A stretch of DNA of 64,000 nucleotides. It comes from Polyangiaceae bacterium. Its GTDB lineage: Bacteria > Myxococcota_A > Polyangia > Polyangiales > Polyangiaceae. Position numbers and translations under genes: made by a program. How positions within the stretch are numbered: position 1 is the first letter of the stretch; each line of letters opens with the position of its first letter. The stretch spans positions 657,501 through 721,500 of the forward strand of contig JAHBVX010000001.1 in NCBI GenBank assembly GCA_019637295.1. Direction: 5' to 3'. The notes beneath the pieces were generated by a model. The model was not told the DNA's origin. It did not search any database and worked only from the letters and a program-made list of their open reading frames with translations. Shown piece by piece: positions 9,996-41,872 of the stretch.

Positions 9996-10130
9996 CTCGA
10001 GAGCTGTCGAATTACCGACAGCTCTTTCATTCTTTCACCGGGGAGGCACGCGCCTCCCCGCCCCGCCGAAGCGAATTCGTCGGGGCGGAGCCCCACGGCG
10101 CGAACTGGGTCGATTCCTGACAGCCCTTCA
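9996..10130 (-). repeat. Interspersed structured repeat, copy 1 (135 bp)
   Basis: This is the diverged copy of a three-member family. In the minus-strand sense it begins with the TGA stop of metF (10130-10128) and continues AGGGCTGTCAGGAATCGACC, then shows hairpins with arms at 10076-10085/10061-10070, 10052-10059/10040-10047 (identical to the other copies) and a terminal one at 10016-10025/10000-10009, ending in CTCGAG. Against copies 2 and 3 it lacks about 16 bp around the small GAA-loop hairpin. Base changes in the stems include one compensated pair. Confidence 0.9.
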
Positions 10131-10988
10131 GCGCAGGGCTTCCAGGATCTGCACCGTGGCGGGCGAGCGGTTGAGCGTATAGAAGTGGATGCCGGCGGCG
10201 CCCCCGTCGAGCAGCGCGCGGCACTGACGGATGGCGTGCTCCACACCGATCTGCTTGACCGTCTCGGCGTCGCCGTCACAGCTCTCGAGGCGATGCAAGA
10301 GCGCCTCCGGGATCCGTGCGCCGCACATCGCCGTGAAACGCTTGATTTGCTTGAGGTTCGTAACCGGCATGATGCCCGCGATGATCGGGCAGGTGATGCC
10401 GACGCCTCGCGCGCGCGCGACGAAGTCGAAGAAGTCGTGCTCGTCGAAGAAGAGCTGGCTGACCAAGAACTCCGCGCCCGCTTCGACCTTGCGCTTGAGG
10501 TTGGCGAGATCCGTCGCGGCGTCCGGCGCTTCAGGGTGCTTCTCGGGGTAGCAGGCGGCGGCGACGGTGAATCGGTAGCGCTCGTGGATGAACTGCACCA
10601 GCTCGCTGGCGTGGCTGAAGCCACCCTCGGTGACGACGAAGTGGTCCACGTTCTTGGGCGGATCCCCGCGCAGCGCCAGGACGTTGTCGATCCCCCCGTC
10701 GCGCAGCTGGTCGAGTACCTGAGCGATGTCCTCGCGGGTGGCGCCGACGCACGTCAGGTGCGCCATGCTCTCGATGCCCGTCTCGCGCTGGATGCGGCAC
10801 ACGAGATCGACGGTGAGCTTGCGCGTGCCGCCGCCCGCGCCGTAGGTCACGGAGACGAAAGTCGGCCGGTAGGGCTTCAGATGCGCGACCGTCTCGAACA
10901 GGGTGTCGCGACCCGCCTCGTCCCTGGGCGGGAAGAACTCGAACGAGAAGGAGGGCTCGGGGCTCGAGAGTTTGTCGACGATCTTCAT
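10128..10988 (-). CDS. metF: Methylenetetrahydrofolate reductase
   Basis: MetF reduces 5,10-methylene-THF to 5-methyl-THF with an FAD cofactor, supplying methyl groups for methionine synthesis. The 286-residue protein has the usual single-domain bacterial length and the family motifs FEFFPPRD (16-23, with the catalytic Glu17), TYGAGG (48-53), HLTC (77-80) and LRGDPP (106-111). The start at 10988 is chosen because these motifs begin right after it; the longer frame adds 40 low-complexity residues. Its TGA stop is the first codon of repeat copy 1. A core-MetE gene lies 31 kb away rather than beside it. Confidence 0.93.
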   Translation of the reverse strand: MKIVDKLSSPEPSFSFEFFPPRDEAGRDTLFETVAHLKPYRPTFVSVTYGAGGGTRKLTVDLVCRIQRETGIESMAHLTCVGATREDIAQVLDQLRDGGIDNVLALRGDPPKNVDHFVVTEGGFSHASELVQFIHERYRFTVAAACYPEKHPEAPDAATDLANLKRKVEAGAEFLVSQLFFDEHDFFDFVARARGVGITCPIIAGIMPVTNLKQIKRFTAMCGARIPEALLHRLESCDGDAETVKQIGVEHAIRQCRALLDGGAAGIHFYTLNRSPATVQILEALR

Positions 10989-11052
10989 GCCGTGGCTCGA
11001 AGGGGCGGACCGTAGCGCCGGCCCCTCGAAATGAAAAGGACTCGAGCGCCGT

Positions 11053-12576
11053 TCAGCCGAGGCCGCGCAGCGCCGGTGGGAGATGGGACAACTCGAGCCG
11101 GGGAGCACCCGCCAGCTCGCGCGCGGCTCGGACGCAGGCCTCGAGCTCAGGCAGATTCCCGGGCCAGGTGTGACGCGCGAGCGCTAGCGCCGCGGCGGCG
11201 TCCAGCGTGACGTCGCCGGCGGACTGTCGCCCGAGCACGCGCACCAACAAAGTCCCGAGGTCGGCCAAGCGGTGTCTGAGCGGTGGTAGCGAGCAACGAA
11301 ACCCACCGAAGCGCTGCAGCAACTCGGGTGCACCCTGAGCCGCGTAGCAGTGCGCGTAGGACGCGCGCGAGGTCGCCAGCACGCGCACCTCTGGCACAAC
11401 GAGGAGCAGCGCTGCGAGGCGGGCGCGGTGCTCCGGTAGTAGTTCGTCCACGGTCTCGAGGAGCAACGCTCCGCCGCGAGCGCGGGCGACCTCGCGCTCC
11501 AGTTCGACGACATCGGTGTCCGTGGCGCGCAGGACGACCAGCGGCCCAGGTCGACCCGAGATGCCGTGCAGTTCTCGGGCGAGCGCGGACTTGCCAACAC
11601 CGGCTTCACCCTCGATCCAGACGTCCTGAGCCGAGCCCGCGACGCGCAGCAAGTCCCGCTCCAGGGCGCGCAGTTCGGGCAGTACGCTCCCCAACAGCGA
11701 GGCCGGCTCCGCCCGCGCGTCGACCTCCGGGTCGAGCCCGGTGATCCGCTGGTGAGTACCCAGCGTGAGCAGGGTGTGCCCGACCTCGAGCACGTCTCCC
11801 ATGGCGAGGGCCTGTCGTCCCTGAACGCGTTTGCCGTCGAGCCAGGTGCCGTTGCTGGAGCCCAGATCCTCCACCGTCCAGCGCTCTCCGTCGAGCACCA
11901 GGCGTGCATGCCGGCGCGAGAGCGCGTCTCCGGGCAACGTGAGCAGCACCTGACCTGCCTTGCCGTCCGGGGCGTGCGTCACGCGACGCTCGGTGCCTCG
12001 TCCGATGTGAACCGCACGAACCCCGACCAGGCTCACCGCTGCGCCCAGATCCCGCGGCGCATCGGCGCGGAGGATGACGAAGAGATGCGGAAGCGTCGCG
12101 TTCATCGCGCCGCCGCGCGAGCTGTCCACGTCCGTGCTTGGTACCTCGCTCTCGGGCACTGGTATCGAGAACAGAGAGCCGAGCGCTGCGCGTGCCTGGG
12201 TCTGTCGCTCGGTGTCGAGCAGCGTCTCGGTGAGCGAGATGGACGCCACCGGCTCGGCCGCCGCGACGAAGCGGAACCCCTTGCCGCGCACCGTGCGCAG
12301 GACCGCCGGCTCTGTCGAGCTGTCACCGAGCGCGCGGCGCGCGGCGCTGACAGCCTGACTGAGGGATGCCTCGGACACGGCCACTCCGCTCCACAGCTCC
12401 CGCAGGAGCTCGTCCTTGGTGACCACCCGATCCCGATGGCGGGCCAAGTAGACGATCAGATCCAGCACTTTGGGCTGCACGGCGAGCGCAGCGCCGCCTC
12501 GGCGTAGCTCGAAGGTGCCCTCGTCGAGCTCGAACTCGCCGAACCGGAGCAGCAAAGGGCTCGGAATCTGGCTCAT
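11053..12576 (-). CDS. Winged-helix + FHA + AAA (sigma-54-activator-like) regulator
   Basis: The protein has 507 residues in three parts. Residues 8-106 are an OmpR/CadC-type winged helix ending in RTVRGKGFRF. Residues 185-275 are an FHA phosphothreonine-binding domain with GR (192-193), SRRH (220-223) and SNGTW (241-245). Residues 295-500 are an AAA module with Walker A GEAGVGKS (323-330), a degenerate Walker B near 370-378 and a final WPGNLPELEAC helix as in sigma-54 activators, but the GAFTGA loop that contacts sigma-54 is not visible. It probably responds to Ser/Thr kinase signalling. It is divergent from the secreted protease at 12745, a likely target. Confidence 0.8.
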   Translation of the reverse strand: MSQIPSPLLLRFGEFELDEGTFELRRGGAALAVQPKVLDLIVYLARHRDRVVTKDELLRELWSGVAVSEASLSQAVSAARRALGDSSTEPAVLRTVRGKGFRFVAAAEPVASISLTETLLDTERQTQARAALGSLFSIPVPESEVPSTDVDSSRGGAMNATLPHLFVILRADAPRDLGAAVSLVGVRAVHIGRGTERRVTHAPDGKAGQVLLTLPGDALSRRHARLVLDGERWTVEDLGSSNGTWLDGKRVQGRQALAMGDVLEVGHTLLTLGTHQRITGLDPEVDARAEPASLLGSVLPELRALERDLLRVAGSAQDVWIEGEAGVGKSALARELHGISGRPGPLVVLRATDTDVVELEREVARARGGALLLETVDELLPEHRARLAALLLVVPEVRVLATSRASYAHCYAAQGAPELLQRFGGFRCSLPPLRHRLADLGTLLVRVLGRQSAGDVTLDAAAALALARHTWPGNLPELEACVRAARELAGAPRLELSHLPPALRGLG

Positions 12577-12732
12577 CGGAGCGGCAGCAGTATCACGCGG
12601 CCAGCCCAGCTGCGAACCGGCCAGGCGGCCAGTGCGGCCAGACTTCAGGTGGCGCTGAGGGAATCTTCAGCCTCCGCTCAAGCAGCCCCGTCGCTCCGTC
12701 ACCACGCTGACCCGTGCCCCAACAGACACTCG

Positions 12733-12739
12733 AGGAGGC
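12733..12739 (+). promoter_or_regulatory. Strong ribosome-binding site of the protease gene
   Basis: GAGGAGG lies five bases before the ATG at 12745, an unusually good match for this region. The 168-bp spacer between the divergent regulator and protease genes also holds their promoters, but no clear -35/-10 pair is visible. Confidence 0.6.
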
Positions 12740-12744
12740 AATAG

Positions 12745-15246
12745 ATGCGATCGATTCGACTAGGACTTGTGACTTCTTTGCTCGTGGCCCTCACCGCGAG
12801 CTGCACGGTGACACTCGGCGAGAAGGACGACGGCGCGGGCGGCGGCGCAGCGGCCGGAGGCAGCGGTGGTAGCGCTGGCGGCAGCGCGAGAGTCGAGGTC
12901 GATCCGTCGATTGGAGTCGACGACGGGGTGCTGCCGGCGTTCGACGCGGGCGGCCCCGCGCGACGCGTCGCCACGGTGATCACCAGCGCAGGCAACACCA
13001 TGCAGCTGATCGAGAACGAACTCCTGGTCGCCACCGCGTCGCCGGGCCAGCTCGAGGCCTTCGTTGCGCGCCGCGGTGCGACGGTGTTGGGCAGCTACGA
13101 CCTCGCGTCCGCGGGCGACACGTCAGGCGTGGTCTATCACGCCGTGCGCGTGAACCCCGCCAAGGCTACGGCGGGCGAGCTCGAGAGTGTGCTCGCGGAC
13201 GTGCAGGGTACGCCCAGCAAGGTCACGGCCTCGAGCGAGGCCGCTGTCGCGACGCTGGCCGTGTTCGCGTCCGAGTCGAAGGCTGGGCTGGCCGTGTTCC
13301 CCAACTTCGTGTGGCAGAAGGACGGCATCGCGGATCGCAGCACTGCAGACGCTCCGGCCGCGTCCGGCGCTCACGCCGCGGACTACACGCCGAACGCCTT
13401 CGAGTGGCCCTACATGCGACGCGGCGGCGCGCTGGACATCGGCGTCGCCGAAGCGTGGCGGGTGCTCGAGGCTCACGGCAAACACACGGCGCGAGTCCCT
13501 GTCTTGATCCTGGACGCGGGGTTTCGCAACAACGACCTGCCCGCGGACACGGTGCTGGTGGGCGGCACCAGCTGGGATCAGCCGAATGGGGGGATGTGCT
13601 GCAACGGTACCTGCGCTTGCCCTTGGCACGGAACCGGCGCTGCACGCACGGTTGCTGGGGTGCCCGACAACGAGTTCGGCGCAGCAGGGTCCGGAGGTCC
13701 CGTCGCGCGTCCGTTCCTGCTGCAGTCACCGCGCGAGAACTTCTTCGATTTCTTGGAGTACACCTTCGGCCTCATCGCCGGCGTCGCGTCCGCCCCCATC
13801 GTCAGCATCAGCGCCAGCACCACCATCGACCAATGGGTGTGCGACGTCTCCGGGTTCTTCCTGGGAGAGAATGGCGTGTGCGTGCTGCCTCATCGCTTGG
13901 GAGCGTCGCTGCGAGCAGCCAACGTCCTGCTCGTCTCGAGCGCCGGCAACAACCCCGCTCGGGACCTGGACTCCGGGGATTTCACGCTGCCCTGCGAGAT
14001 GACGGGGACCATCTGCGTCGGTGGCATGAACTGGAGCGCGCCGACCCTCTCCGGCGGCTCCACGCGCGCCTCGAAGCGCGCCGCGGGCGCGATCGACATC
14101 TACGCTCCCTTCGAGCTGTGGGTGGGCCCCGACCCGGCCGACCCGACCACCAACCAGGCGACGATCTTCTCGGGGACGAGCGCGTCGGCGCCGTTCGTCG
14201 CGGGCGTAGCGGCGCTGATCAAGGCCGCCAACCCGGGCCTCTCGGCCGGGGGCATCGAGTCGGTGCTGCTGTCGAGCGCGCACGTGGGCAACTCGAGCCA
14301 GGTTCATCGCTGGGTGAACGCCTACGGGGCGGTGCGCCAAGCCGTCGGCGGGGACGCGCCTCCCTTTCTCCGCATCCTGCAGCCCATCGACGGGACCAGC
14401 GCGCCACGGCTCGCCGCGCCGATGAAGTTCATCGCTGATCTGGAGGTCCCCTCCGGCAGCGCGAGCGTGACCTGGAGCAGCAACCTCGACGGTCCGCTCG
14501 GCACGGGAGCCGAGGCCACCTACACCGGCCTCCTGTCCTTCGGTACCCACGTCATCACCGCGACGGTCACCGCCGCCGGGCTCACCCACACGGCGACCTC
14601 GTCCCTGACGCTCACGAACACCGCGCCGGTAGCGACCATCCTCGCGCCCGCGGTCGGGTCGCAGTTCTACGTCAGTCAGGCCATCTCGCTCTTGGGGCAG
14701 AGCTACGATCAAAACGAGGCCGGCACGACGCTCGCCAACTCTCAGGTGACTTGGCTGTTGAACGGCACGCCGCTCGGCACGGGACACGCTCGGGACATCG
14801 CGCCGAGCTCACTGTCCGTGGGCTACCACACGCTGACCTTCCGAGTGAGCGACGGCACCCACACTCACGACGCCAGCCGCGTGGTGCAGGTGCTGAGTAA
14901 CCCCGCGAACTTGCCGCCGGTGATCGGCGTCATCAGCCCCGCCAGCGGCACCAACCTCGGCTACGCGGATGTGCTCGTGGGCGGCAAGTGGGTCAAGCAG
15001 GTGAACCTGAGCACGACGGCGACGGATCCGGACGGCCCGGTGCTGCCGGACTCTGCCTTCACGTGGAAGACGACCTACTCGGACGGGGGCTCACCCGTGA
15101 CGCTGAACCTGGGCACCGGCAAGAGCATCCTGGCGAACCTGCCGGGCGTGTGCAACTCGGTGCAGCACCTCGTGACGGTCACCGTCACCGACGGCACTAC
15201 CCCGGTGAACAAGAGCGTGACCTACGTGGTGCACACCCTCTGCTGA
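12745..15246 (+). CDS. Subtilisin-like (S8) serine protease lipoprotein
   Basis: The 833-residue protein starts with a signal and a lipobox cysteine (TASC) followed by a Gly/Ser linker. A propeptide-like region precedes the peptidase domain (about 245-535), whose triad is visible: Asp257 in LILDAGF, His295 in CPWHGTG and Ser479 in GTSASAPF; the oxyanion Asn is in SSAGNN. Residues from about 545 onward are beta-rich Ig/PKD-like modules with PxxG-type repeats, probably for substrate or surface binding. It is likely exposed at the outer membrane or released. The gene is divergent from a winged-helix/FHA regulator, suggesting a dedicated control pair. Confidence 0.85.
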   Translation: MRSIRLGLVTSLLVALTASCTVTLGEKDDGAGGGAAAGGSGGSAGGSARVEVDPSIGVDDGVLPAFDAGGPARRVATVITSAGNTMQLIENELLVATASPGQLEAFVARRGATVLGSYDLASAGDTSGVVYHAVRVNPAKATAGELESVLADVQGTPSKVTASSEAAVATLAVFASESKAGLAVFPNFVWQKDGIADRSTADAPAASGAHAADYTPNAFEWPYMRRGGALDIGVAEAWRVLEAHGKHTARVPVLILDAGFRNNDLPADTVLVGGTSWDQPNGGMCCNGTCACPWHGTGAARTVAGVPDNEFGAAGSGGPVARPFLLQSPRENFFDFLEYTFGLIAGVASAPIVSISASTTIDQWVCDVSGFFLGENGVCVLPHRLGASLRAANVLLVSSAGNNPARDLDSGDFTLPCEMTGTICVGGMNWSAPTLSGGSTRASKRAAGAIDIYAPFELWVGPDPADPTTNQATIFSGTSASAPFVAGVAALIKAANPGLSAGGIESVLLSSAHVGNSSQVHRWVNAYGAVRQAVGGDAPPFLRILQPIDGTSAPRLAAPMKFIADLEVPSGSASVTWSSNLDGPLGTGAEATYTGLLSFGTHVITATVTAAGLTHTATSSLTLTNTAPVATILAPAVGSQFYVSQAISLLGQSYDQNEAGTTLANSQVTWLLNGTPLGTGHARDIAPSSLSVGYHTLTFRVSDGTHTHDASRVVQVLSNPANLPPVIGVISPASGTNLGYADVLVGGKWVKQVNLSTTATDPDGPVLPDSAFTWKTTYSDGGSPVTLNLGTGKSILANLPGVCNSVQHLVTVTVTDGTTPVNKSVTYVVHTLC

Positions 15247-15267
15247 CGGCGCCCCTCTCGCGCACGG

Positions 15268-15300
15268 CGCCGCGAGCTTCTCCTCGAGAGGCTCGCGGCG
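15268..15300. terminator. Hairpin between convergent genes
   Basis: CGCCGCGAGC (15268-15277) pairs with GCTCGCGGCG (15291-15300) to form a ten-pair stem with a 13-nt loop between the stops of the protease and the convergent lipoprotein gene. There is no U-tract, so it could act as a bidirectional block or mRNA end stabiliser rather than a classical intrinsic terminator. Confidence 0.5.
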
Positions 15301-15318
15301 TCGCGCTCGTGGTGCGGT

Positions 15319-16041
15319 TCAGTCCTGGCAGGGAATCGTGCAAACGCAGATGTGATTGTCCAGACACCGGTAGCCCTTGGGGCAGGGCGACGCCTCGCAG
15401 GCGGACGGGAATCCGCGGTCCGACTTGCACACGTCCGAGCACTTGGGCTTGCTACCCTGGGACGGCGCGGCGGCGCCGCCCGCACCCGCGCCGGCATCGA
15501 ACGTGATACCCGGCGCGGGTGCGCCTTTGGGCCAAGTCGCCGTGAGGGTGCGTCGGCCTCGCTCCGTCCAGTCGAAGGCGATCTTCGCGTCCAGCCCTTC
15601 GCGCAGCGGGAGCACGACGCTCGACACCCCCTTGGCGTCATAGGTGAAGAACTCGGCGTTCTTCTTGGGCTGCACCAGGGTCACTGCCTGGATCTGCGGC
15701 GGAGAGCTGCCCGTGGTTCGGCAGCTCACGCGCAGCCACTCGCGCACCCGTTTCGTCTCGCAGCCCAGGGGGCCCGAGTGGCGCACGGAGATCTCGGAGC
15801 TCTGCCACCGTGGGCGGCTTGCTCCGCTCCGTCGGGATGCCCCGGGGAACGATCTGCTTGGCGATGGACTCGAGCTCGCTTGCCTCGACCTCTGGCTCGG
15901 CGCTGCTCGGCGCCGCGCTCGGCGCCGGGTCGGTCGTCGGTGGCGTTGCGCTGGCCACTGGTGCCGTGTCGTCCGCGCCACCCTTGCACGCCAGAAGTCC
16001 CAGCAGCACGAGCACTGCCGGCGCCGGCCAGGTGCGGGGCG

Positions 16042-16045
<4 letters not shown>
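15319..16045 (-). pseudogene. Lipoprotein gene interrupted by an apparent frameshift
   Basis: The GTG start at 16045 overlaps the upstream stop by four bases (GTGA) and opens a clear lipoprotein signal (VLLGLLAC) with an acidic Pro/Ala linker, reaching GIPTERSKPPTVAE. That frame then loses sense, while another frame picks up at SSEISVRHSG and continues to a Cys-rich C-terminus ending at 15319. The break lies near 15797-15806, at a CTC/TCC run. Restoring it (one base removed or two added) gives about 241 residues. It could be a true mutation, a sequencing error or, less likely, programmed shifting. The family is unknown. Confidence 0.65.
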
Positions 16046-16995
<950 letters not shown>

Positions 16996-17166
16996 GGCGA
17001 CACCGTAAGGGCAACGACCTCCCGACTCCAGGGAATAGGCCGAATCGACCCCTCCCGAGGGCCCCGCCGGAAATTCCCTGCTTGGAGAGCCGCCTTACAC
17101 GACCGGTGACCTCTGCATTTTGCGCCCTGGCTCGGCCGCACCTTCCGGATAAGCTCCGGCGGCTCG

Positions 17167-18432
17167 ATGGACGTCTCCCCCGAACCCAGCTGGAGCGGGT
17201 CCCATCGGCCCCGTGAGTTCCTGTACTGGCGGAACCGCGACCGGCCCTGGGCGCGAGCCCTTCGCTCGGGCCTGCGAGCGCTGCTCGGCTTCGACCCCGC
17301 ACCCCCGGACGAGCTCGTGCGCACCCTCGCGGCCATGTACTACGACGCCGACCCCCTCGCGGAGGCGTTCGTCGACGAGGTGTACCTCGCGCAGAGCAGC
17401 GCGCGAGGCCGCGAGCTGCTCGACCGCGCGCTCGCGGTGGGCATCGACGCCATGGACGACGCGCCGGAGTCGCTTCGCCTCCTGTTCCGGGACATCGAGC
17501 GCGCGCCCGAGTGGCTCGACGCCGAGCAGGTCGAGCTCGGAGCGCGCGTGTTTCGTCGCTACGGCACGACGGTGTTCGACTTCGCCGGCGCCATCACCCT
17601 GGCGGGCTACTCCGAGTCCTCCGTGGCCAAACCGCTGGTGCTCAGCGGTGGCTACGTGGGCCAGTCCACCAAGCGCCGCTTCCTGGAGACGGCTGCCTTT
17701 TGGATTGCCGTATCGGAACCGGGCGGTCTGCTCCCGGGCGCGCCGGGTCGCGCGAGCGCGCTGCGGGTGCGCATCATGCACGTCTTCGTGCGTCGCCGGC
17801 TGCTCGCGCACCCCGAGTGGGATCTCGAGGCGTGGGGCGTACCGATCAGTCAGGCCGACGCACTGCTCACGTTGATGGGCGGCAGCTTCGCGCCGGGGGT
17901 GGCGCTCCATGCGCTCGGCTTCCGCACGAGCCGCCGAGAGATCGAGGCGTTGATGCACTACTGGCGCTACGTGGGGCATCTGATGGGCGTGCGCCCCCGT
18001 TGGTACCCCGAGACGCTGCGCGAGGCGGTGCAGCTCAGCTATGTCACCGCGGTGAAGGGCGCCGGGCGCGCGGGCGAAGACGGCCGCCGCCTGTGCCAGT
18101 CCTACGTCGCCGCGTTCGAGCCGGAGCCGACGCCCTCGCTGGCCGAGAAGGTGCGCCGGGTGCTCGAGCATCGACTGCACCGCGCCACGACGCGCTTGTT
18201 CCTGCCGCCGTGGCTCTACGCCAGAAATGGGCTCCCGCCGGCCGGGCTGTGGACGCTGTACCCGCTGCTCGTGTTCCCACCGCTGTTCGCCCTGGAGACC
18301 GCGCGCCGACGGAGCCCGCGACTGGAGGCGCTCGTCGACCGCGTCGCTCGCGCACAGCGCCGTCGTTGGCTCCTTCGTCACCTGGGCACGGAGCGCGCGG
18401 AGTATAGACCCTCCGAGAGACTCACGAGATGA
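17167..18432 (+). CDS. MpaB/Lcp-like oxygenase family protein (DUF2236)
   Basis: The protein has 421 residues and the layout of the MpaB/latex-clearing-protein family, haem proteins that include the rubber oxygenase Lcp. The key segment LRVRIMHVFVRRRL (199-212) matches the family pattern with the proximal haem ligand, here His205. An N-terminal WRNRDRPW and several Arg/His-rich helices are also typical. There is no signal peptide, unlike secreted rubber oxygenases, so an intracellular or membrane-associated oxidation of an unknown substrate is more likely. The TGA stop is the first codon of repeat copy 2. Confidence 0.75.
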   Translation: MDVSPEPSWSGSHRPREFLYWRNRDRPWARALRSGLRALLGFDPAPPDELVRTLAAMYYDADPLAEAFVDEVYLAQSSARGRELLDRALAVGIDAMDDAPESLRLLFRDIERAPEWLDAEQVELGARVFRRYGTTVFDFAGAITLAGYSESSVAKPLVLSGGYVGQSTKRRFLETAAFWIAVSEPGGLLPGAPGRASALRVRIMHVFVRRRLLAHPEWDLEAWGVPISQADALLTLMGGSFAPGVALHALGFRTSRREIEALMHYWRYVGHLMGVRPRWYPETLREAVQLSYVTAVKGAGRAGEDGRRLCQSYVAAFEPEPTPSLAEKVRRVLEHRLHRATTRLFLPPWLYARNGLPPAGLWTLYPLLVFPPLFALETARRRSPRLEALVDRVARAQRRRWLLRHLGTERAEYRPSERLTR

Positions 18433-18580
18433 AGGTCTGTCAAGAATTGACCCAGTTCATGCTGGCGAAGCCGGCCCGCGTGGGGTGGGGCCCCAACGAA
18501 TTCACTTCGTTGGGGCGGGGAGGCGCGTGCCTCCCCGGCGACAGAATGAAAGAGCTGTCGAATCTTCGACAGCTCTTGAG
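18430..18580 (+). repeat. Interspersed structured repeat, copy 2 (151 bp)
   Basis: It begins at the TGA stop of the MpaB-like gene (18430-18432), continues AGGTCTGTCAAGAATTGACC and ends in TTGAG. Five hairpins are visible: 18439-18451 (GTCAA/TTGAC, GAA loop), 18461-18475 (GCTGGC/GCCGGC, GAA loop), 18491-18515 (CCCCAACGAA/TTCGTTGGGG), 18517-18536 (GGGGAGGC/GCCTCCCC) and 18551-18576 (AGAGCTGTCGAA/TTCGACAGCTCT). It differs from copy 3 at three positions only. The next gene, on the same strand, starts 49 bp after it. Confidence 0.95.
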
Positions 18581-18629
18581 CAGTCGACATCGAGGCTCGC
18601 CTTCACTAGGCAGGCGCTGGAGGTAAGGG

Positions 18630-19655: not shown

Positions 19656-19705
19656 GCGCGCTGGCCGTTGACTCCCGGGCGATCTGCCGACAGCGTTCGC
19701 CACCC

Positions 19706-21433: not shown

Positions 21434-21440
21434 GCCCGTC

Positions 21441-22931: not shown

Positions 22932-23008
22932 GCGCGCGGGAGTCGCCCCGGTCTTGTCCTCCGTCGGGTTCGATGGCAGAAGCGGGCCCCAACTCATCGG
23001 CCCACGCG

Positions 23009-23014
23009 AAGGAG
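23009..23014 (+). promoter_or_regulatory. Ribosome-binding site deciding a GTG start
   Basis: AAGGAG lies seven bases before the GTG at 23022 and supports that start for the YchJ-like gene. Confidence 0.6.
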
Positions 23015-23021
23015 CCTCATC

Positions 23022-26317: not shown

Positions 26318-26324
26318 GCGTGGC

Positions 26325-29254: not shown

Positions 29255-29348
29255 ACCGGGACTCTAGCAGCAGGGTCCCCGGGTTCTGGCCGAGATCGTG
29301 ACGCGCGAGGTCGCTAGCCGTGCCGTCGGAATTTTCCAAGCTCGCGGC

Positions 29349-30158: not shown

Positions 30159-30284
30159 CGCGGCTACAAAGCCCCCGAATGTGGGCTTCGAGCCCGAGGC
30201 CTAGCGCGACCGGCGGGTCCTGACAAGAAAAGCGGGGGACGGTCTCTTGGCCAACCCGGGCCGAGTCGGCCAGATTAAGGGCCG

Positions 30285-31567: not shown

Positions 31568-31672
31568 GGTCCTCGCGCGCTCTGGTTCTTGCCAGACGCG
31601 GAAGCGACGCGGCGCGCTCCAGCAGTCGCAGGGCGAACTCGGGTCCCCGCGCCACCCGCCGCGTCATCGGGC

Positions 31673-31720
31673 TTGCCACCAAGGTTTGCCACCAAGCAAA
31701 TATATGCTAAATCAAATGTC
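31673..31720 (+). promoter_or_regulatory. AT-rich leader with an 11-bp direct repeat before the transposase gene
   Basis: TTGCCACCAAG occurs at 31673-31683 and again at 31686-31696, followed by a 24-bp AT-rich stretch that includes TATATGCTAAAT. This is by far the most AT-rich patch nearby and contrasts with its surroundings. It may hold the promoter of the transposase gene or mark an insertion junction. No ribosome site is seen. Confidence 0.45.
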
Positions 31721-32500
31721 ATGCGTACCATGCGTGATTCACGGGGGAATCGGCCAGCGCGCGCGGGGTCCGTCGCGTGGGGTGGCGCGCGACCAGGAGC
31801 CGGGCGCAAGCGGTCCGGACCGCGCCCTCGCGTGCCCCACCTATCGCGCGCCACGTTTTCGTCCAATCGACCGCTGCACGTCACGCTACGAATGCGGGAC
31901 GACGTCCCTTCGCTGCGCCGCCGGGGCACGTTTTCCGTCGTGCATCGCGTGCTGACTGCGGCGAAAGAGCGCTTTGGCACGCGCATCTGCCACTACTCGG
32001 TGCAGAGCAATCACATCCACTTGATCATTGAGGCCCGCGGCAAACCATCGCTCGCGCGAGCGCTGCAGGGTTTCGGTATCCGTCTGGCCAAACGTCTCAA
32101 CGCGCGCCTTGGGCGCCGAGGCGCCGTACTGGCGGACCGCTACCACTCGCGTGCGCTCACCTCGCCGCGAGACGTGAGGACCGTTCTACGCTACGTGCTC
32201 GGCAACTTCCGGAAGCACGACGAGCGGGCACATCGCTTCGCGTTCTTGGACCCGTTTTCGTCGGCGCTCTGGTTCGACGGCCTCCGCGGCGCGCGTGGTG
32301 TCGAGCCGGCGTACGTGCTGCTCGCCAAGCCCGAGTGGGCGCCGCTCGGCCGTGCGGACCCTCGTCTCACCGGTCGCGGCCCGGAGGTCGCCGCGCCGCG
32401 CACGACATGGCTACGCAGCAGCTGGCGGCGTCATGGTCTCATCGGGCACGACGAGCGTCCGGCCACTCGCGTCACTCGCGCTTCACCCCGTCCGCGCTGA
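31721..32500 (+). CDS. REP-associated tyrosine transposase (RAYT, Y1_Tnp family)
   Basis: The protein has 259 residues. The N-terminus has GGARPGAGRKR, a basic motif common at the start of RAYTs. The Y1 transposase domain follows: RPLHVTLRMRDD, then the HUH motif HIH (98-100) in SNHIHLIIEA, and the catalytic tyrosine probably Tyr158 in RYVLGNFRKH. RAYTs cut single-stranded palindromes and are thought to spread REP-type repeats. The last 29 bp overlap the convergent TPR gene, so the C-terminal tail is built over existing sequence. No flanking palindrome pair was recognised next to it. Confidence 0.85.
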   Translation: MRTMRDSRGNRPARAGSVAWGGARPGAGRKRSGPRPRVPHLSRATFSSNRPLHVTLRMRDDVPSLRRRGTFSVVHRVLTAAKERFGTRICHYSVQSNHIHLIIEARGKPSLARALQGFGIRLAKRLNARLGRRGAVLADRYHSRALTSPRDVRTVLRYVLGNFRKHDERAHRFAFLDPFSSALWFDGLRGARGVEPAYVLLAKPEWAPLGRADPRLTGRGPEVAAPRTTWLRSSWRRHGLIGHDERPATRVTRASPRPR

Positions 32501-33407: not shown

Positions 33408-33432
33408 CTGCCGGCCGAAATTGGAATCGACG

Positions 33433-34602: not shown

Positions 34603-35069
34603 GGGAGAGTGAACTCGACGGTGACCTGAGTGGGCGCGGCGGCCGGAGGCACGGGCAGGTCTGCAAGCGCCTGAGTGACGCAGTTGCCCAGCCCCTCGCG
34701 AAAAGCATCCCGTTCCTCGGAAATGCCGAACGCCGCGACGCCAGCAGTCCCCACCGTCCCGTTCCAGGTCAGCTTCACGCTTCGGGGCTCGGGGTTGGAT
34801 GCGGCGGGGCCATCCCAGCACTTTTGCTTCAGCATGGCGCGGCGCGCCTCAATGGCGGCTTTGACCTTACCCTCGACCGCAGTCCGATCCGGAGCAATCG
34901 CTGCCGACACTGGGGTCTGGATGGCGGACGGAGCGCTGGTAGGCGCGTCACCGCCGCTCGAAGAACCTGAATGGACCTGCCGTTCTCGGGACTGCAGCCC
35001 GAAGTACAGGCCGAGAGCAATGAGCGCGCTCCCTCCCAGTACGGCGAGGGGAAGAGATTTCTCGTTCAT
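34599..35069 (-). CDS. Small single-span membrane protein coupled to the GT2 gene
   Basis: The start at 35069 gives 156 residues with one membrane helix at about 6-25, then a Ser/Pro-rich linker and an outer domain with a Cys pair (QKCW and GNCVT) and a conserved-looking VKLTWNGTVG strand. This resembles the C-terminal domain found in AgmX/TonB-like myxobacterial proteins, but the match is uncertain. Its stop overlaps the GTG of the glycosyltransferase (34599-34602), so the two are made together. Confidence 0.65.
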   Translation of the reverse strand: MNEKSLPLAVLGGSALIALGLYFGLQSRERQVHSGSSSGGDAPTSAPSAIQTPVSAAIAPDRTAVEGKVKAAIEARRAMLKQKCWDGPAASNPEPRSVKLTWNGTVGTAGVAAFGISEERDAFREGLGNCVTQALADLPVPPAAAPTQVTVEFTLP

Positions 35070-35124
35070 GAGCGCAACGGCGCGCGCCGCCGTGAACTGC
35101 GACGCGCGCCGCGATGGTAGAGGA

Positions 35125-36204
35125 CTACTGGTTGTACACCAGTGCGGTGGTGTAGCCCCACTCGTTACTGTTCCAGTTCGCGTTGCTGTCGGCCGTAAGA
35201 CCGCACAACCCGACGGTGTAGGTACCAGTGAGGGGACCCACGACTGCACTCAGTCCCATGGGGACGCGAGTGCCGGACGTCGTCTGGAGGTTGTACGTCC
35301 CGCCGCCAACCTGGGTTGGGGTGCCTGCGCTGGAGGACAAGCGATAGCACATCCACAGGCGGAGCTGGCCGGCCGAGGCGTTGCTGGTACCAAACGCCTT
35401 CATCGAATCCACGAGCGCGCGCTGCGTGGCGGTCAGCGTGACGTTCACCGTCGGTCCGAGGAACTGGAGCGTCCCTGATGGCGTGTTGCCCGGTCCGGTG
35501 GAGAACGCCGAACTCACCACGCCGCTCGGCCCCGTCGGACCCGTCGGACCTGTCGGACCTGCCGGACCTACGAGACCCTGAATGCCCTGCGGACCGGTTG
35601 CGCCGGGGGCACCCTGCGGACCCGTCGGCCCGACCGCGCCGGCGGCACCCTGCGCGCCCTGCGCGCCCTGCGGACCCGTGGGACCAGCCGGACCCTGCGG
35701 ACCCTGCGGACCCGTCGGACCCGTCGCGCCTACGCCGCCGGGGCCAACCCACTGGCCGCTGGCGTTGATCACCGTCGTGCCGTTGACGCTCACGCTGGTC
35801 GGCGTGATGTCGCCCACCGCGTTGTTCGCCATCAGCGCGTAGGGAACGCTGACCAGCGCCTGACGGGGAGTCATCTCCGCGTCGGTGCCGACCTTCACGG
35901 CCAGGTAGCGGGTCGAGCCGTCGAACACGCTGGCCGGGATCGCCGTGGCCTCGCCGAGGCGCGCGGAGAAGTAACCGTCGTCGAGCGTGACGTTCTGGGT
36001 CTCGGTCCACAGGGCGGTGCCGCCCGTCGCCGCGCCGTACACGGAGAACTGGATGGAGACGGTGCCGGTGGCCGGTGAGCCGGTGCTGGTGAAGAGCCTG
36101 CCCTGCTGGGTCAGGACGCTGGGGACCGCCGAGGACGCCGCCGAAGCGACGAACAGCGAGGCGGCCAGAGAAGCTGCGGAGAGGATGCCAAGTTTGCGTG
36201 CCAT
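35125..36204 (-). CDS. Secreted collagen-like (Gly-X-Y) protein
   Basis: The protein has 359 residues with a signal peptide to about residue 25. Residues 28-150 form a beta-rich domain also found in tail-fibre-like exoproteins ([41 protein letters not shown]). Residues 154-228 are about 25 uninterrupted Gly-X-Y triplets rich in Pro, Thr, Gln and Ala, which can form a collagen triple helix. A C-terminal globular domain (230-359) may drive trimerisation or binding. It is probably an extracellular fibre. The downstream small gene lies 55 bp away. Confidence 0.82.
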
Positions 36205-36234
36205 GTTCTATTCAACCTTCGATTCAGAGGAAAA

Positions 36235-36684
36235 TCATTCTGCCGCGCCGATGAACCCGCCCTCGAGGCGGTAGTTCGTCGACGTCGAGACCCCGTTGCC
36301 GCCAGGGCTGTCCCCGGTGGTGAGAACCAACCGATAGTTGGTGCTGGTCATGACCGTGCCGCCGGAGACGACCGCCAGGACCGAGGCCGAGGAGCCAGGC
36401 GAGCCACCCGTGCCGCCGCCGGTCCCGCCCGCGCCGGCTTGACCGCCCGCGCCGGCTTGGCCTCCGGTGGCGCCGGTGCCACCCGCGCCTCCCGTTGCTC
36501 CGCCGGTGCCGCCGGTTGCGCCGCCGGTACCTCCGAAGTTGAGCCCGCCGGAGCCGCCAGCGCCACCGCTGCCACCTCCACCGGGTGAGGGGCTCGCTCC
36601 GTCGTCACCGCCGCAAGCCAGCAGCGACGTGCTGGCGACGGCGACCCCGAAGAGCAACCCCAAGGTTACTGTTTTGGATCTCAA
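36235..36684 (-). CDS. Gly-rich lipoprotein
   Basis: The TTG at 36684 follows a strong ribosome site and gives a signal with lipobox (SLLAC), whereas the ATG at 36711 would add nine basic residues and lies inside a hairpin. The mature protein of about 125 residues is mostly Gly/Thr/Ala repeats, then two copies of a short STNYRL strand motif (TMTSTNYRLVL, VSTSTNYRLEGG). It is encoded just upstream of the collagen-like gene on the same strand (30 bp), so the two are likely co-expressed surface proteins. Confidence 0.7.
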   Translation of the reverse strand: MRSKTVTLGLLFGVAVASTSLLACGGDDGASPSPGGGGSGGAGGSGGLNFGGTGGATGGTGGATGGAGGTGATGGQAGAGGQAGAGGTGGGTGGSPGSSASVLAVVSGGTVMTSTNYRLVLTTGDSPGGNGVSTSTNYRLEGGFIGAAE

Positions 36685-36690
36685 GAGTTC

Positions 36691-36725
36691 CTGCCTTCCT
36701 CGGCCAGCCACCCGCTGGCCCGAGG
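36691..36725 (-). promoter_or_regulatory. Ribosome site next to a hairpin before a TTG start
   Basis: On the minus strand AGGAAGGCAG (36700-36691) precedes the TTG at 36684. A stem formed by 36698-36708 and 36714-36725 (CCTCGGCCAGC against its complement, one bulge, CACCC loop) takes up the first three bases of that site. The hairpin could tune translation of the Gly-rich lipoprotein. Confidence 0.45.
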
Positions 36726-36855
36726 CGAGATGAAGCTCCCGAGCTGGCCGCGACGCAAGCCGCCCGGGCGGCCCGCTCGAAGCAGCGTGAATTAGTCTAG
36801 AGGATTCCAGCGTTTGTATCGGCGGCGCCGCCGCCCAGGCGGAGCCTCACCAGCG

Positions 36856-38829
36856 TCAAGTGCACTGCCCCGCGCCGTTGCAGGTCTTGTTGCCCACGCA
36901 CTCGTTGTCCGGATCCGTGCCCGCGGGGCTCGGCGTGCAGGTGCCCAGGTTGCCCGCGAGGTTACAGCGTTGGCAGGTGCCGCTGCACGCGGTGTTGCAG
37001 CAGCGACCATCCACACAGAAGCCGCTCGCGCAGTCCGCCGCGGCGGAGCACGTCTTGCCGTTGACGCACTTGCTGCAGCTCGCGCTGCTGCCGCAGTCGA
37101 CGTCCGCCTCGGTGCCGTTCTTGATTCCATCCGAGCAGGTCTGACACGCCGCGCCCGCGCAGGTGTAGGGCGAGGAGCACGCGGTCTCGGCGCCCACGAC
37201 GCACTGCCCGGCGCCGTTGCAGGTGTCCGCGGCGTAATGTGTGCCGCCGACGCAGGACGCCGCCTTGCACACGGTCCCGCTCGCGTGCATCTGGCAGCCG
37301 CCGCCCCCGCACATGCCCGTCGTGCCGCAGGTCGAGGCGGCTGTCGCGGGGCACTCGTTGTCCGGATCCGTGCCGGTGGTGACGTTGGCGCAGGTGCCGG
37401 TGGTCATCCCCGTCCTGTTGGAGGTGCAGGCCTGGCACGTGCCCGTGCAGGCCGCGTTGCAGCACACCCCGTCCGCGCAGAACCCGCTGGCGCAGTCACT
37501 CCCGGCGAGGCAGGTGAGCCCCAGCGCGCACTTGGGGCAGACGCCGCCGCAGTCGATGCCCGTCTCGGTGCCGCTCTTGAAGCCGTTCTTGCAGCCGCAC
37601 TGCCCGCCGCTGCAGGTGTCCCCCGGGTCGCACGTGCCGCAGTTCAGCGTGGTGCCGCAGCCGTCGCTCAACGTCCCGCAGCTGCGATTCTGCGCCGCGC
37701 AGGTCGTGGGCGTGCAGCAGCTCCCGAACTGATTGCACACCATGCCGCTACCGCAGCTCGTGCCTGCCGGCATGTAGCTGTGCTGCGCCGACGTGCCCAC
37801 GCACTGGTCGCTGGTGCAGGGATTGTTGTCGTTCGGGAGATCGAGCGGGTCTGCTTGGTAGGTGGTCGACCCGGAGCCGTTGCAGACCAGGACGCGACAG
37901 TCTCCGGCCACCTGCTCGCTCGCGGGCAGCGGCGTGCCGCTGGGCACGTAGGCCGAGGTACAGCTGCCCGCCTCGCACGTCGCGGTCGAGCACGTGCCGG
38001 AGCCGCTGCTGGTGCAGTCGCTGTTCGCGACGCACTGCACGCACTTGCCCTTTCCGTCGCACACCCAGCTGCCCGAGCAGCTCGTGCCGGCGGGCAGCGG
38101 CTCGTTCACGGGCAGTCCGGAGGCGCTGCAGATGCCGACGGTACACTCGACGCCGTCGTCCGGCACGTCGAACGGATCGGCCGCGTCCACGTCCTTGCCG
38201 TTGTCGCAGCGTCGCTCCTTGCAGTCGCCTTCGGTCTGGCTGACGCCGGGCGTCGGCATCCCCGAGAGTCCCACGTGGTTGCACTTCCCGGAAGCGCCAC
38301 ACTCTGGCAAGTCGCAAGGCAGGCAAGCGTCGTCCGTGCAGGAGTTCTCGTCGTCGCACACGTCTGCCGGGCTGAGCAGGCTGCACAGCACCAGGCATTG
38401 CCCCTTGGTACACTTGCCGGTGCCCTTACCGACGACGCACTTGCTGCCCTCGAGCTTGGCGGTGTGCACCGGCGCGCCATTGAGGCACGAGTCCTGGGTG
38501 CACTGTTCGCCGTCGTCGAACACATCGCCGTCGTCGTTCACCAGCGTCGGTTGGCCTTTGGTGCAGACCACCTTCTTGCAGTCCCCCGGCGTCTGCTCCT
38601 TCGCGTCGGCGTCGGGGACCACAGCGTTCGTGCAGTAGCCCACGACGCAGCGGTCGAGGGTGCAGGCGTTGCCGTCGTCGCAGTCGTTGTCCGCAAGACA
38701 TCCCTTGCCGGCGTCGACTCCGCCATCTCCCCCGCTCGGTTCGTCGCCGTCGCTGCCGCCGCAACCCACTGCCAAGAGCGCTGCCGCGCCGAGCGCCAAC
38801 GTCCATCGTGCCCAAATCATCCCACGCAT
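36856..38829 (-). CDS. Large Cys-rich repeat lipoprotein
   Basis: The protein has 657 residues with a lipobox (LLAVGC). It is composed of Cys-rich modules of 30-60 residues, for example CLADNDCDDGNACTLDRC, CNAACTGTCQAC and DGIKNGTEADVDCG, the last type appearing several times. Such modules are widespread in secreted myxobacterial proteins and probably form disulphide knots. The central part has Asp-rich DxDxD-like turns that may bind calcium. There is no catalytic signature. It is probably a surface adhesin-like protein. Confidence 0.8.
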   Translation of the reverse strand: MRGMIWARWTLALGAAALLAVGCGGSDGDEPSGGDGGVDAGKGCLADNDCDDGNACTLDRCVVGYCTNAVVPDADAKEQTPGDCKKVVCTKGQPTLVNDDGDVFDDGEQCTQDSCLNGAPVHTAKLEGSKCVVGKGTGKCTKGQCLVLCSLLSPADVCDDENSCTDDACLPCDLPECGASGKCNHVGLSGMPTPGVSQTEGDCKERRCDNGKDVDAADPFDVPDDGVECTVGICSASGLPVNEPLPAGTSCSGSWVCDGKGKCVQCVANSDCTSSGSGTCSTATCEAGSCTSAYVPSGTPLPASEQVAGDCRVLVCNGSGSTTYQADPLDLPNDNNPCTSDQCVGTSAQHSYMPAGTSCGSGMVCNQFGSCCTPTTCAAQNRSCGTLSDGCGTTLNCGTCDPGDTCSGGQCGCKNGFKSGTETGIDCGGVCPKCALGLTCLAGSDCASGFCADGVCCNAACTGTCQACTSNRTGMTTGTCANVTTGTDPDNECPATAASTCGTTGMCGGGGCQMHASGTVCKAASCVGGTHYAADTCNGAGQCVVGAETACSSPYTCAGAACQTCSDGIKNGTEADVDCGSSASCSKCVNGKTCSAAADCASGFCVDGRCCNTACSGTCQRCNLAGNLGTCTPSPAGTDPDNECVGNKTCNGAGQCT

Positions 38830-38932
38830 GACTCGACCCTAGCACGAACGCCAGCTCGTCTCGCACCACATCCGCTAGTCGTGGCCCCGGGAAGGACTCC
38901 GCGCAGGCGCGCGTATGACGCTCGCAGGTCGG

Positions 38933-40705
38933 TCAGACGCGGGCACGCCGCGGGTGCAAGCCAAAGCCCGGCGGCGCGGCGACGGGCTCTCCACGCAGCT
39001 CCGCGAGCACCTCGCTCGGCAGCGGGAACCAGCGCAGGTGCTCGAAGTCCGGCGACAGCGCGGGGGCGTCCGCGCTGATGGACTCGGGGTTGGCGCGCAC
39101 CTCGTCGATCAAGCGTCGCGCCTCGTCGAGGTAGCCCTCGAGCACCCACTCGGGCTCGGTGGCGTGACGCGTCCCGTACTGCAGCGTGCCGCCGCGATAG
39201 GACAGATCCGCCAGGCGCATGGGCGGTCGCGGCCGAGCGTCCCGGTGGTGCCACTTGCCGCTGCTGCGGTCGAACGCGTACAAGGGCAGCAGCAGGTACC
39301 CCGCCGTAGCCACCAGCTCCACGGCCTTGACGATGAAGTCGAACACCGCCTCCGACAGGAAGTAGTTGAAGTTCACCCGCACCCAGCCGGGCTTGATGCC
39401 CTCGCAGCCGGTCAGGATCTCCCGCTCGAACTCCTGGCTGGTCTGTAGGTCGATGCCCAGCAGTCGGTGGCCGTAGGGGCCGGCGCAGGAGCAGCCGCTG
39501 CGCGCCTGGATGCCGAACAGGTCGTTGAGCAGGGCGGCGACGTAGTCGTGGTGCAGGTAGCCCGCGCCGTGCCGAACCACGAAGGAGACGATGCTCAGGC
39601 GCCACTTCTCCAGGTTGCCCAGGATCTCGATGTTCGGGTGCGTGGACCAGGCCTTGATGGCGCGTACGATGAAGTCCCGCTCGCGCTGCTTGATGGCGTC
39701 GATGCCCACCGCCTCCTTGAGCTGGAACACGAGCCCGGCGCGGATCGAGCCCACGATGTCCGGCGTGCCACCCTCTTCGCGCACCTCGGGCTCCGACAGG
39801 TACACGTGGCTCTTTGGGTTGACGTAAGAGACCGTCCCGCCACCCGGGACGGCGGGCACGCTGTTGGTGAGCAGGTGCCGCTTGGCGACGAGCACTCCCG
39901 GCGTGCCGGGGCCGCCGATCATCTTGTGGGGCGAGATGAAGATCGCGTCCTTGTAGATCAGGTCCCCGCCCGGCAGGTCGTCCCGCATGTTCATCTCGAT
40001 CTTCACGTAGGGCCCGGCCGCCGCGAAGTCCCAGAACGAGAGCGCGCCGTGGCGGTGGAGCAGCGCCGCGATGTTGCGTGTGTCCGAGCCGATGCCCGTC
40101 ACGTTGCTGGCCGCCGAGAAGCTGCCGATCTTGAGCGGGCGCTCCGCATGACGCACGAGCTCCCGCTCGAGATGCGCCAGATCGATGCGACCGTCGGAGT
40201 CCTCGTCGATGGTGATGACGTCGGCGATGGACTCGCGCCAAGGCAGCTCGTTGCTATGATGCTCGTAGAAGCCGATGAACACGACCGGGCGCTGCCCGGG
40301 CGGGATGTGCTGGCTCAGGCCGTAGCGCAGGTCGAGCTCCCGCGGGATGCGCAGGTTCATCACGTCGATGAGCTTCGCGATGGCGCCCGTCGCGCCCGAG
40401 CCGCAGAAGATCACCGCGTCGCGCTCGTCTGCGCCCACCGCGCGTCGGATGACCTCGCGAGCGTCCTCGCGGAACCGTGACGTCTGCAGCCCCGTGCTCG
40501 AGCTCTCGGTGTGGGTGTTGGCGTAGCGGGGCAGCACCTCGTTGCGGATGAAGTCCTCGAGGAAGCTCAGGGAGCGTCCGCTGGCCGTGTAGTCCGCGTA
40601 GGTGATGCGGCGCGGGCCGAAGGGCCCGTCCATCACCTGGTCGTCGCCGATGATGGAGCTGCGGATGGTCTCGATCAGGCGGGCGGAGTCGGTCGGGTGG
40701 GTCAT
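38933..40705 (-). CDS. Class V aminotransferase (cysteine desulfurase-like) with C-terminal extension
   Basis: The start at 40705 gives 590 residues; the 27 upstream residues look untranslated. The PLP fold covers about 20-440: SSTGLQTSRFREDARE, CGSGATGAIAKL (cofactor phosphate), EHHSNELPW, and the Schiff-base Lys261 in ISPHKMIGG. A Cys-containing loop (RSGCSCAGPYGH) sits where desulfurases carry the active Cys. About 150 residues follow that are absent from IscS or SufS. The family resembles NifS-like transaminases of unknown substrate. It is divergent from the methyltransferase gene at 40876. Confidence 0.82.
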   Translation of the reverse strand: MTHPTDSARLIETIRSSIIGDDQVMDGPFGPRRITYADYTASGRSLSFLEDFIRNEVLPRYANTHTESSSTGLQTSRFREDAREVIRRAVGADERDAVIFCGSGATGAIAKLIDVMNLRIPRELDLRYGLSQHIPPGQRPVVFIGFYEHHSNELPWRESIADVITIDEDSDGRIDLAHLERELVRHAERPLKIGSFSAASNVTGIGSDTRNIAALLHRHGALSFWDFAAAGPYVKIEMNMRDDLPGGDLIYKDAIFISPHKMIGGPGTPGVLVAKRHLLTNSVPAVPGGGTVSYVNPKSHVYLSEPEVREEGGTPDIVGSIRAGLVFQLKEAVGIDAIKQRERDFIVRAIKAWSTHPNIEILGNLEKWRLSIVSFVVRHGAGYLHHDYVAALLNDLFGIQARSGCSCAGPYGHRLLGIDLQTSQEFEREILTGCEGIKPGWVRVNFNYFLSEAVFDFIVKAVELVATAGYLLLPLYAFDRSSGKWHHRDARPRPPMRLADLSYRGGTLQYGTRHATEPEWVLEGYLDEARRLIDEVRANPESISADAPALSPDFEHLRWFPLPSEVLAELRGEPVAAPPGFGLHPRRARV

Positions 40706-40875
40706 GGGGCGTCTGCAAACCTCACGCGGCGGTAGGCGCGCCGACGTCGCAGTCTGGCAGGGGCGGGCGGCGGCTACCACCGTCACGTAGCAGGCACCCC
40801 CTCGCGGGCGTGAGGCGTCCTCCGTCCCCGCCCCTCGCCTTCCGAACGGCGCGCGAGCGTGTATCCTGTCGCGCC

Positions 40876-41724
40876 ATGTCGGTCAGCCACCGCCAGCTTG
40901 CCAGCCGCACCGCCCTGATGGTGGCGGCGTATCGCGGCGCTGCCAGCGCGCGACCCGATGCGATCTGTCACGATCCCCACGCCGCCGCGCTGGCGGGCGA
41001 GGAGGGGCGCGAGATCGCCGCTCGCTTCAGCTCGACCTTCCCGGCGATGGAGCTGTGGGTGGCGCTGCGCACGGCGTTTCTCGACGCGCAAGTCGAGCGG
41101 TGGCTGAGCCAGGGCTCGGTTCAGGTCGTGATCCTCGGCGCGGGCTTCGACACCCGGGCCGCCCGGCTGGCGCGAGAGGGCGTGCGCTTCTTCGAGGTCG
41201 ATCACCCCGCGACCCAAGCGGACAAGCGACAGCGCCTCGCGCGCATCAGCGACTATCCCGCCACCGCAGCCCACTACGCGCCTTGCGACTTCGAGCGGGA
41301 CGAGCTCGTCGAATGCTTGCGGCAGAGCGGCTTCTCTACCGACCAGCCGGCGGTCGTACTCTGGGAGGGTGTGGTGCCGTATCTCACCGAGGTCGCGGTC
41401 CGAAAGACGCTGCACACCGTCGCGCACGAGCTGCACCCGCGCTCGGTGATCGCGTTCGACTACTTGATGAAGACCATGGTCGAGAGCCAGCGCTTGTCCG
41501 AGAGCGACGCGCGCACTCGCGCGCAGGTGGAAGAGCTCGGCGAGCCGCTGCGCTTCGGCACCAATCACCCGCTGCCCCTGCTCCACGAGGAGGGCTTCGG
41601 CCGCGTGCGCACGATCTCCTTCGACGAGATCGCGCTCGACTTTGGTGCGGGCTACGATCGCGCTCGTCAGTTTCGCTTCCAGCACGTCGCGCTGGCCAGC
41701 CGCGAAGCGGCGGTCATCGTCTGA
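40876..41724 (+). CDS. SAM-dependent methyltransferase, PPM/leucine carboxyl type
   Basis: The protein has 282 residues and the pattern of the TIGR00027/PPM methyltransferases: an N-terminal helical cap (TALMVAAYRGAAS), the SAM loop ILGAGFDTR (86-94), EVDHP for ribose binding, and WEGVVPYLTE near the substrate pocket. Such enzymes methylate carboxyl or hydroxyl groups of natural products or proteins; the target here is unknown. The ATG at 40876 is chosen over a 66-bp longer frame. Its TGA stop is the first codon of repeat copy 3. Confidence 0.85.
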   Translation: MSVSHRQLASRTALMVAAYRGAASARPDAICHDPHAAALAGEEGREIAARFSSTFPAMELWVALRTAFLDAQVERWLSQGSVQVVILGAGFDTRAARLAREGVRFFEVDHPATQADKRQRLARISDYPATAAHYAPCDFERDELVECLRQSGFSTDQPAVVLWEGVVPYLTEVAVRKTLHTVAHELHPRSVIAFDYLMKTMVESQRLSESDARTRAQVEELGEPLRFGTNHPLPLLHEEGFGRVRTISFDEIALDFGAGYDRARQFRFQHVALASREAAVIV

Positions 41725-41872
41725 AGGTCTGTCAAGAATTGACCCAGTTCATGCCGGCGAAGCCGGCCCGCGTGGGGTGGGGCCCCAACGAATTCACTTC
41801 GTTGGGGCGGGGAGGCGCGTGCCTCCCCGGCGACAGAATGAAAGAGCTGTCGATTCTTCGACAGCTCTCGAG
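41722..41872 (+). repeat. Interspersed structured repeat, copy 3 (151 bp)
   Basis: It begins at the TGA stop of the PPM methyltransferase gene (41722-41724) and ends CTCGAG, eight bases before the stop of the convergent MetE-like gene at 41881. It is identical to copy 2 except at three positions: one turns a G-U into a G-C pair in the small GAA hairpin (GCCGGC at 41753-41758), one is in the loop of the terminal hairpin (41843-41868), and one is in the last bases. It has no indels against copy 2. Confidence 0.95.

What the first reader, a model, noticed from the sequence alone, without database searches (positions are those of the whole stretch)
9996..41872. All three repeats start exactly at the TGA stop codon of the upstream gene, in sense orientation
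Sequence similarity between copies begins at the TGA of metF (10130-10128), of the MpaB-like gene (18430-18432) and of the PPM methyltransferase (41722-41724). The bases before TGA share nothing. Zero-nucleotide spacing in three of three, always sense, suggests either insertion targeting at stop codons or a 3'-UTR module acquired with its stop codon. TGA is the commonest stop at this G+C, so the codon itself may be part of the target rather than of the element.
Basis: seen in the sequence. Interest (0 to 1): 0.9.

Follow-up and report, generated by a model that had tools for sequence, protein, structure and literature searches.

The report
Mobile repeats sitting on stop codons
A family of about 59 short hairpin-forming mobile repeats in this myxobacterial genome sits almost without exception exactly on the TGA stop codon of the gene upstream, apparently because the repeat inserts at a short target that contains TGA and mainly insertions at gene ends survive.

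Summary
The host genome has ~59 copies of the ~151-nt element. Of 55 with a recognisable left end, 50 begin exactly on the in-frame TGA of the upstream sense gene. A second genus shows the same (8 of 11). A same-genus genome lacks the element, and its orthologous genes end at or near the same codon, so genes are not truncated. No copy has a displaced stop behind its right end, so the TGA belongs to the target. The target reads RC|TGA (C 45/50, purine 44/50). The element is two unequal inverted terminal hairpins around a structured core, without target duplication: a REPIN/BIME-like repeat. Sister genera carry the same core with CTAG ends, mostly intergenic. Exactness follows largely from TGA in the target, loss of insertions inside genes, and a bias to the first ~30 nt after genes in sense orientation; RCTGA availability alone does not explain it (p~1e-11). 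Direct stop-codon recognition is not needed but not excluded. The genome's only Y1 transposase gene (RAYT-like) lies in this window; its link to the repeats is unproven. Qualitative precedent exists: GTAG REPs that supply TAG stops.

The parts
9996..10130 (-). Copy 1 (135 nt, internally shortened, subfamily B): starts on the TGA of metF
10128..10130 (-). TGA stop of metF (MTHFR, PF02219) = left junction; orthologue in the same-genus genome G001 ends at the same codon with TAG and has no element
18430..18580 (+). Copy 2 (151 nt, subfamily A): starts on the TGA of the MPAB_Lcp-domain gene 17167-18432
41722..41872 (+). Copy 3 (151 nt, subfamily A): starts on the TGA of the LCM methyltransferase gene 40876-41724; right end 8 nt from the stop of the convergent gene 41881-43005
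41729..41747 (+). Left terminal (imperfect) hairpin unit CTGTCAAGAATTGACCCAG, similar to the reverse complement of the right hairpin
   Evidence: sequence
41767..41830 (+). Structured core GTGGGGTGGGGCCCC-hairpin-GGGGCGGGGAGGCGCGTGCCTCCCC, shared with element families that have different ends in sister genera
41842..41869 (+). Right terminal perfect hairpin (12 bp) with hypervariable loop, followed by the fixed GAG end; lacks a U-tract
31892..32500 (+). RAYT-like Y1 (HUH) transposase gene, the only PF01797 match in the host genome; no element end near it; candidate mobiliser in trans

Best explanation
The repeat is a non-autonomous, REPIN/BIME-like mobile element: two unequal inverted terminal palindromes around a structured spacer. 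Its left end joins the target at RC|TGA and its right end is a fixed TTGAG. It leaves no target duplication, which suggests a single-strand Y1/HUH (RAYT or IS200/605-type) route [inferred]. The TGA is the host gene's own stop codon serving as part of the target [well supported]. In-frame exactness arises because (1) the target contains TGA, (2) insertions at the many other CTGA sites damage genes, promoters or operons and are lost, and (3) insertion or retention is biased to the first few tens of nucleotides after the coding sequence in sense orientation, often in short convergent gaps, so the only usable RCTGA is normally the stop itself [inferred from counts]. Once in place the perfect hairpin probably acts as a 3'-end structure (terminator or mRNA stabiliser), which makes such copies harmless or useful [inferred].
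For: 50 of 55 left ends exactly on the sense in-frame TGA. Recent copies behave the same (21 of 23 at >=94% identity to the query), so slow loss at other sites is not the cause. -1 C 45/50 vs 104/206 (p=1e-7); -2 purine 44/50 vs 43/80 (p=5e-5). Right flank never begins with a stop (0/45). The right end TTGAG stays fixed when the left flank varies, so no TSD. Of 19 syntenic orthologues in G001, 11 end at the same codon and 16 within 3 codons. Convergent context 29/49 vs 44/203, p=9e-7, close to what RCTGA stops with room allow (70:58). Within 30 nt, RCTGA at stops vs elsewhere is 130:14, P(>=50/52)=0.11. Second genus g14: left ends on a TGA stop in L368, L372, L374, L376, L365, L375, L121, L179; not in L364, L370, L178. 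TnpA_REP is reported to cleave a CT dinucleotide next to REPs (PMC8266576), matching C|T here.
Against: No transposase is shown to move it. The RAYT-like gene is not flanked by the repeat, and PF01797 finds nothing in G022, G026, G005, G014 or G004, which carry related repeats, some very numerous. RCTGA availability without a 3' zone predicts only 46-55% at stops (P=4e-13 to 3e-11); the zone is an added assumption. In genus g14 the -1 base is not always C. Which stop codon stood at each site before insertion cannot be read from G001 (14 of 27 TGA vs 32 of 52 background). Two syntenic G001 genes run 13 and 43 codons longer.
Confidence: 0.58

Rival explanations
1. The insertion machinery senses translation stops or mRNA 3' ends directly, for example by inserting into mRNA (sense strand only) followed by reverse transcription, or into DNA exposed where the last ribosome leaves the transcript.
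For: Sense orientation in 50 of 55; exact, in-frame position even in the youngest copies; excess over all tolerated RCTGA sites (P~1e-11); in co-directional gaps of 100 nt or more, where non-stop sense RCTGA outnumber stops 49:24, ten of ten such copies sit on the stop.
Against: A ~30-nt 3' zone makes the counts ordinary. The only reverse transcriptase match in the genome is a short, weak group II-type one. Two copies are reversed 3' of a gene. Sister families with the same core but CTAG ends are mostly intergenic.
Confidence: 0.13
2. The element is kept at stop codons by function: a structured 3'-UTR (bidirectional terminator / RNA stabiliser) selected at its position, mobility being old or incidental.
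For: Strong predicted folds (z=-6.5 RNA; -6.4 DNA for the terminal hairpin); convergent enrichment; REPs elsewhere lie next to both 3' ends of convergent genes (PMC3733652).
Against: Near-identical young copies show the same precision; upstream genes have unrelated functions; the same-genus genome lacks it at all examined sites; no U-tract; only two base pairs covary.
Confidence: 0.14
3. MITE of an ordinary DDE insertion sequence with terminal inverted repeats.
For: Ends are imperfect inverted repeats (AGGTCTGTC-AAGAAT / AGAGCTGTCGAAGAAT); ~150 nt; related families have CTAG at both ends.
Against: No target duplication: the right TTGAG does not follow the left flank when that varies (L066, L080, L098, L109). 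No full-length element with these ends was found.
Confidence: 0.12
4. A module that carries its own stop codon and truncates or caps genes.
For: TGA is conserved at base 1 of nearly all copies.
Against: Orthologues without the element end at or near the same codon; no displaced stop behind the element (0/45); RC upstream of TGA belongs to the target.
Confidence: 0.03

Closest known systems
REP dimers / BIMEs / REPINs
   Same: Short extragenic repeats of two inverted palindromes with a structured spacer; tens of copies; next to 3' ends and between convergent genes; short tag next to the palindrome. GTAG REP termini are reported to often provide a TAG stop to flanking ORFs (PMC3733652).
   Different: Tag is CTGA, not GTAG or CGTC; left hairpin weak, right one perfect; highly structured ~60-nt core shared among families with different ends; overlap with the stop is near-total, not merely frequent; no RAYT gene flanked by it.
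IS200/IS605 family single-strand transposons
   Same: No target duplication; insertion next to a short fixed motif; subterminal hairpins; fixed right-end motif.
   Different: No transposase in the element; target and cleavage not tested.
RAYT (TnpA_REP)
   Same: A single-copy Y1 gene exists in the window; reported CT cleavage fits C|TGA.
   Different: Weak match to the RAYT model (36.3 bits vs cut-off 80); not adjacent to copies; not detected in other genomes with related repeats.

Membership tests
REPIN / REP dimer | Two inverted REP palindromes separated by a spacer, many extragenic copies | tested here: met
   Left and right units are inverted and similar; 59 copies; folds
REPIN / REP dimer | GTAG (or CGTC) tag at the palindrome | tested here: not met
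   Tag is CTGA left, TTGAG right
REPIN / REP dimer | Association with a RAYT gene | tested here: inconclusive
   One RAYT-like gene in the genome, in this window, not flanked by repeats; absent by PF01797 from five genomes with related repeats
IS200/IS605-type mobility | No target-site duplication, fixed left target motif | tested here: met
   RC|TGA left; right end invariant irrespective of left flank
IS200/IS605-type mobility | Y1 transposase acts on these ends | not testable with these tools
   needs biochemistry
DDE-transposon MITE | Terminal inverted repeats flanked by target duplication | tested here: not met
   Imperfect inverted repeats yes, duplication no
Known structured RNA family (Rfam) | Match above gathering score | tested here: not met
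   None in the window; only chance-level matches on the element
Intrinsic terminator | GC-rich hairpin followed by U-tract | tested here: not met
   Hairpin ends in GAG without T-run

The most novel reading that the evidence does not exclude
A mobile element whose insertion machinery is coupled to translation termination or mRNA 3' ends, so that it lands in frame on stop codons as a genome-wide safe haven, in sense orientation.
Probability: 0.12. Interest if true: 0.9.

Novelty: new variant of a known kind. Interest (0 to 1): 0.55.

Why it matters
Stop codons are one of the few short sequences in a dense genome where an insertion can touch a gene without harming it. A repeat whose target contains TGA, and which is found there in nine of ten cases, shows how a selfish sequence can spread to dozens of sites at little cost, and gives a clean natural test of how REP-like repeats choose their sites. 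It also means many genes in this lineage carry an identical hairpin directly after the stop, with likely effects on transcript ends.

Tried and rejected
Rfam: no family. Group II intron link: one G014 copy is fused to a reverse-transcriptase fragment, but the same fragment exists elsewhere in G014 inside an intron-type ORF and no other copy shows it; taken as a rearrangement. RAYT flanked by the repeat: no ends near it; related genomes lack PF01797 matches. Target duplication (TGA...TGA): rejected because the right TTGAG is invariant. A longer target motif: nothing beyond RC|TGA (one marginal position). Loop triplet as a guide to the target: no visible relation with flanks. Covariation: only two pairs, because copies are too alike. 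Generality to CTAG-ended sister families: 5 of 25 assessable copies in G022 and about 1 of 12 in the G026-type genome lie on an exact TAG stop.

Full report
What was claimed and checked. The three repeats in the window begin at TGAAGG, on the TGA of metF (10130-10128, minus strand), of an MPAB_Lcp-domain gene (18430-18432) and of an LCM methyltransferase gene (41722-41724).

Genome-wide test. The window lies in a 7.65-Mb, 25-contig genome (G000). Element-internal searches, which cannot be biased by flanks, gave about 59 copies (fetched). A codon log-odds test of upstream frames and a simple gene caller place the upstream gene's TGA at element base 1 in 50 of 55 copies with a recognisable left end (49 of 54 by the strict criterion, plus L116). 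Orientation is sense in all of these. Exceptions are L073, L078, L086, L103 and L113. Gene calls come from a home-made caller; it reproduces the long ORFs of the window, but single short genes may be wrong.

Replication. A second genus of the same family (g14: G067, G068, G014) has diverged copies; recognisable left ends coincide with a TGA stop in eight of eleven. In G067 the sequence right after TGA has drifted while TGA stays, as expected for a working stop codon. Other genomes carry elements with the same core (GTGGGGTGGGGNCCCC-hairpin-GGGGCGGGGAGG..CCTCCCC) but different ends starting with CTAG. Those are mostly intergenic, with a minority on TAG stops.

Is the TGA from the host or the element? 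First, in G001 (same genus, no element) orthologues of 19 syntenic upstream genes end at the same codon in 11 cases and within 3 codons in 16; only two (pairs with L092 and L107) run clearly longer. Insertion thus did not as a rule truncate genes. Second, no right flank begins with a stop (0 of 45), so no original stop was pushed behind the element. Third, the two bases before TGA are biased to RC relative to other TGA stops. The junction is RC|TGA and TGA is target. G001 uses TGA in 14 of 27 of these genes against 32 of 52 elsewhere, so it cannot show which stop stood at each site before insertion.

Why so exact? In 800 kb of background, tolerated RCTGA sites (convergent gaps, or at least 30 nt before the next gene) are at stops in 46% when all orientations are counted and 55% in sense. 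Observing 50 of 54 or 50 of 52 is then improbable (4e-13, 3e-11). Restricting to sense sites within 30 nt of the stop gives 130 stops to 14 others, and the observation becomes ordinary (P=0.11). Recognition of a stop codon as such is therefore not required, but some bias to the immediate 3' end in sense orientation is. Selection explains part of it: convergent gaps here are short, and far sites in co-directional gaps may carry promoters. Ten of ten copies in co-directional gaps of 100 nt or more still sit on the stop although non-stop sense RCTGA are twice as common there, which leaves room for a true 3'-end preference at insertion.

Anatomy. The element has a weak left hairpin (CTGTCAAGAATTGACCCAG), a ~60-nt core of three helices and a perfect 12-bp right hairpin; the terminal units are inverted relatives of each other. 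There is no target duplication. Two subfamilies (22 and 26 full copies) differ by about 10%. This is the layout of REP dimers/BIMEs/REPINs, but the tag is CTGA rather than GTAG or CGTC.

Mobiliser. The only Y1_Tnp gene of the genome is, by coincidence or not, in this window (31892-32500), a weak match to NCBI's REP-associated tyrosine transposase model. TnpA_REP proteins are reported to cleave CT next to REPs (PMC8266576), which fits C|TGA. Against it: no element end lies near the gene, and PF01797 is not found in five genomes with related repeats. The assignment is a lead only.

Known ground. Di Nocera et al. [quoted passage not shown] The present case is the same kind of phenomenon with another stop codon, another element family and near-complete penetrance. 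Literature searches on myxobacterial REP/MITE repeats gave nothing describing this family, within a library of open papers only.

Noticed in passing
element positions 133-135 (window 41854-41856 in copy 3), all G000 copies: The loop triplet of the right terminal hairpin is by far the most variable part: among 22 near-identical subfamily-A copies these are the three most variable columns (1.2-1.3 bits vs mean 0.10), with about nine different triplets, while the stem is intact. Could reflect hairpin opening during transposition, or simply an unconstrained loop.
   Followed up: partly
L121 (G014:C5), position 1578 on: Left half of an element is fused to the middle of a group II intron reverse-transcriptase gene, a fragment also present at 99% in G014:C124.
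   Followed up: partly
L241-L320 (MAG RH-23may17-1049): About 80 or more stretches carry a related CTAGCAGG-ended repeat; many assembly contigs end inside it.
   Followed up: partly
window 31892-32500: Single-copy RAYT-like transposase gene with an N-terminal GGARPGAGRK motif; not flanked by repeats.
   Followed up: partly
window 5659-6111, 35518-35752, 16705-16872: Low-complexity coding tandem repeats (24-bp, 9/18-bp and 24-bp units).
   Followed up: no
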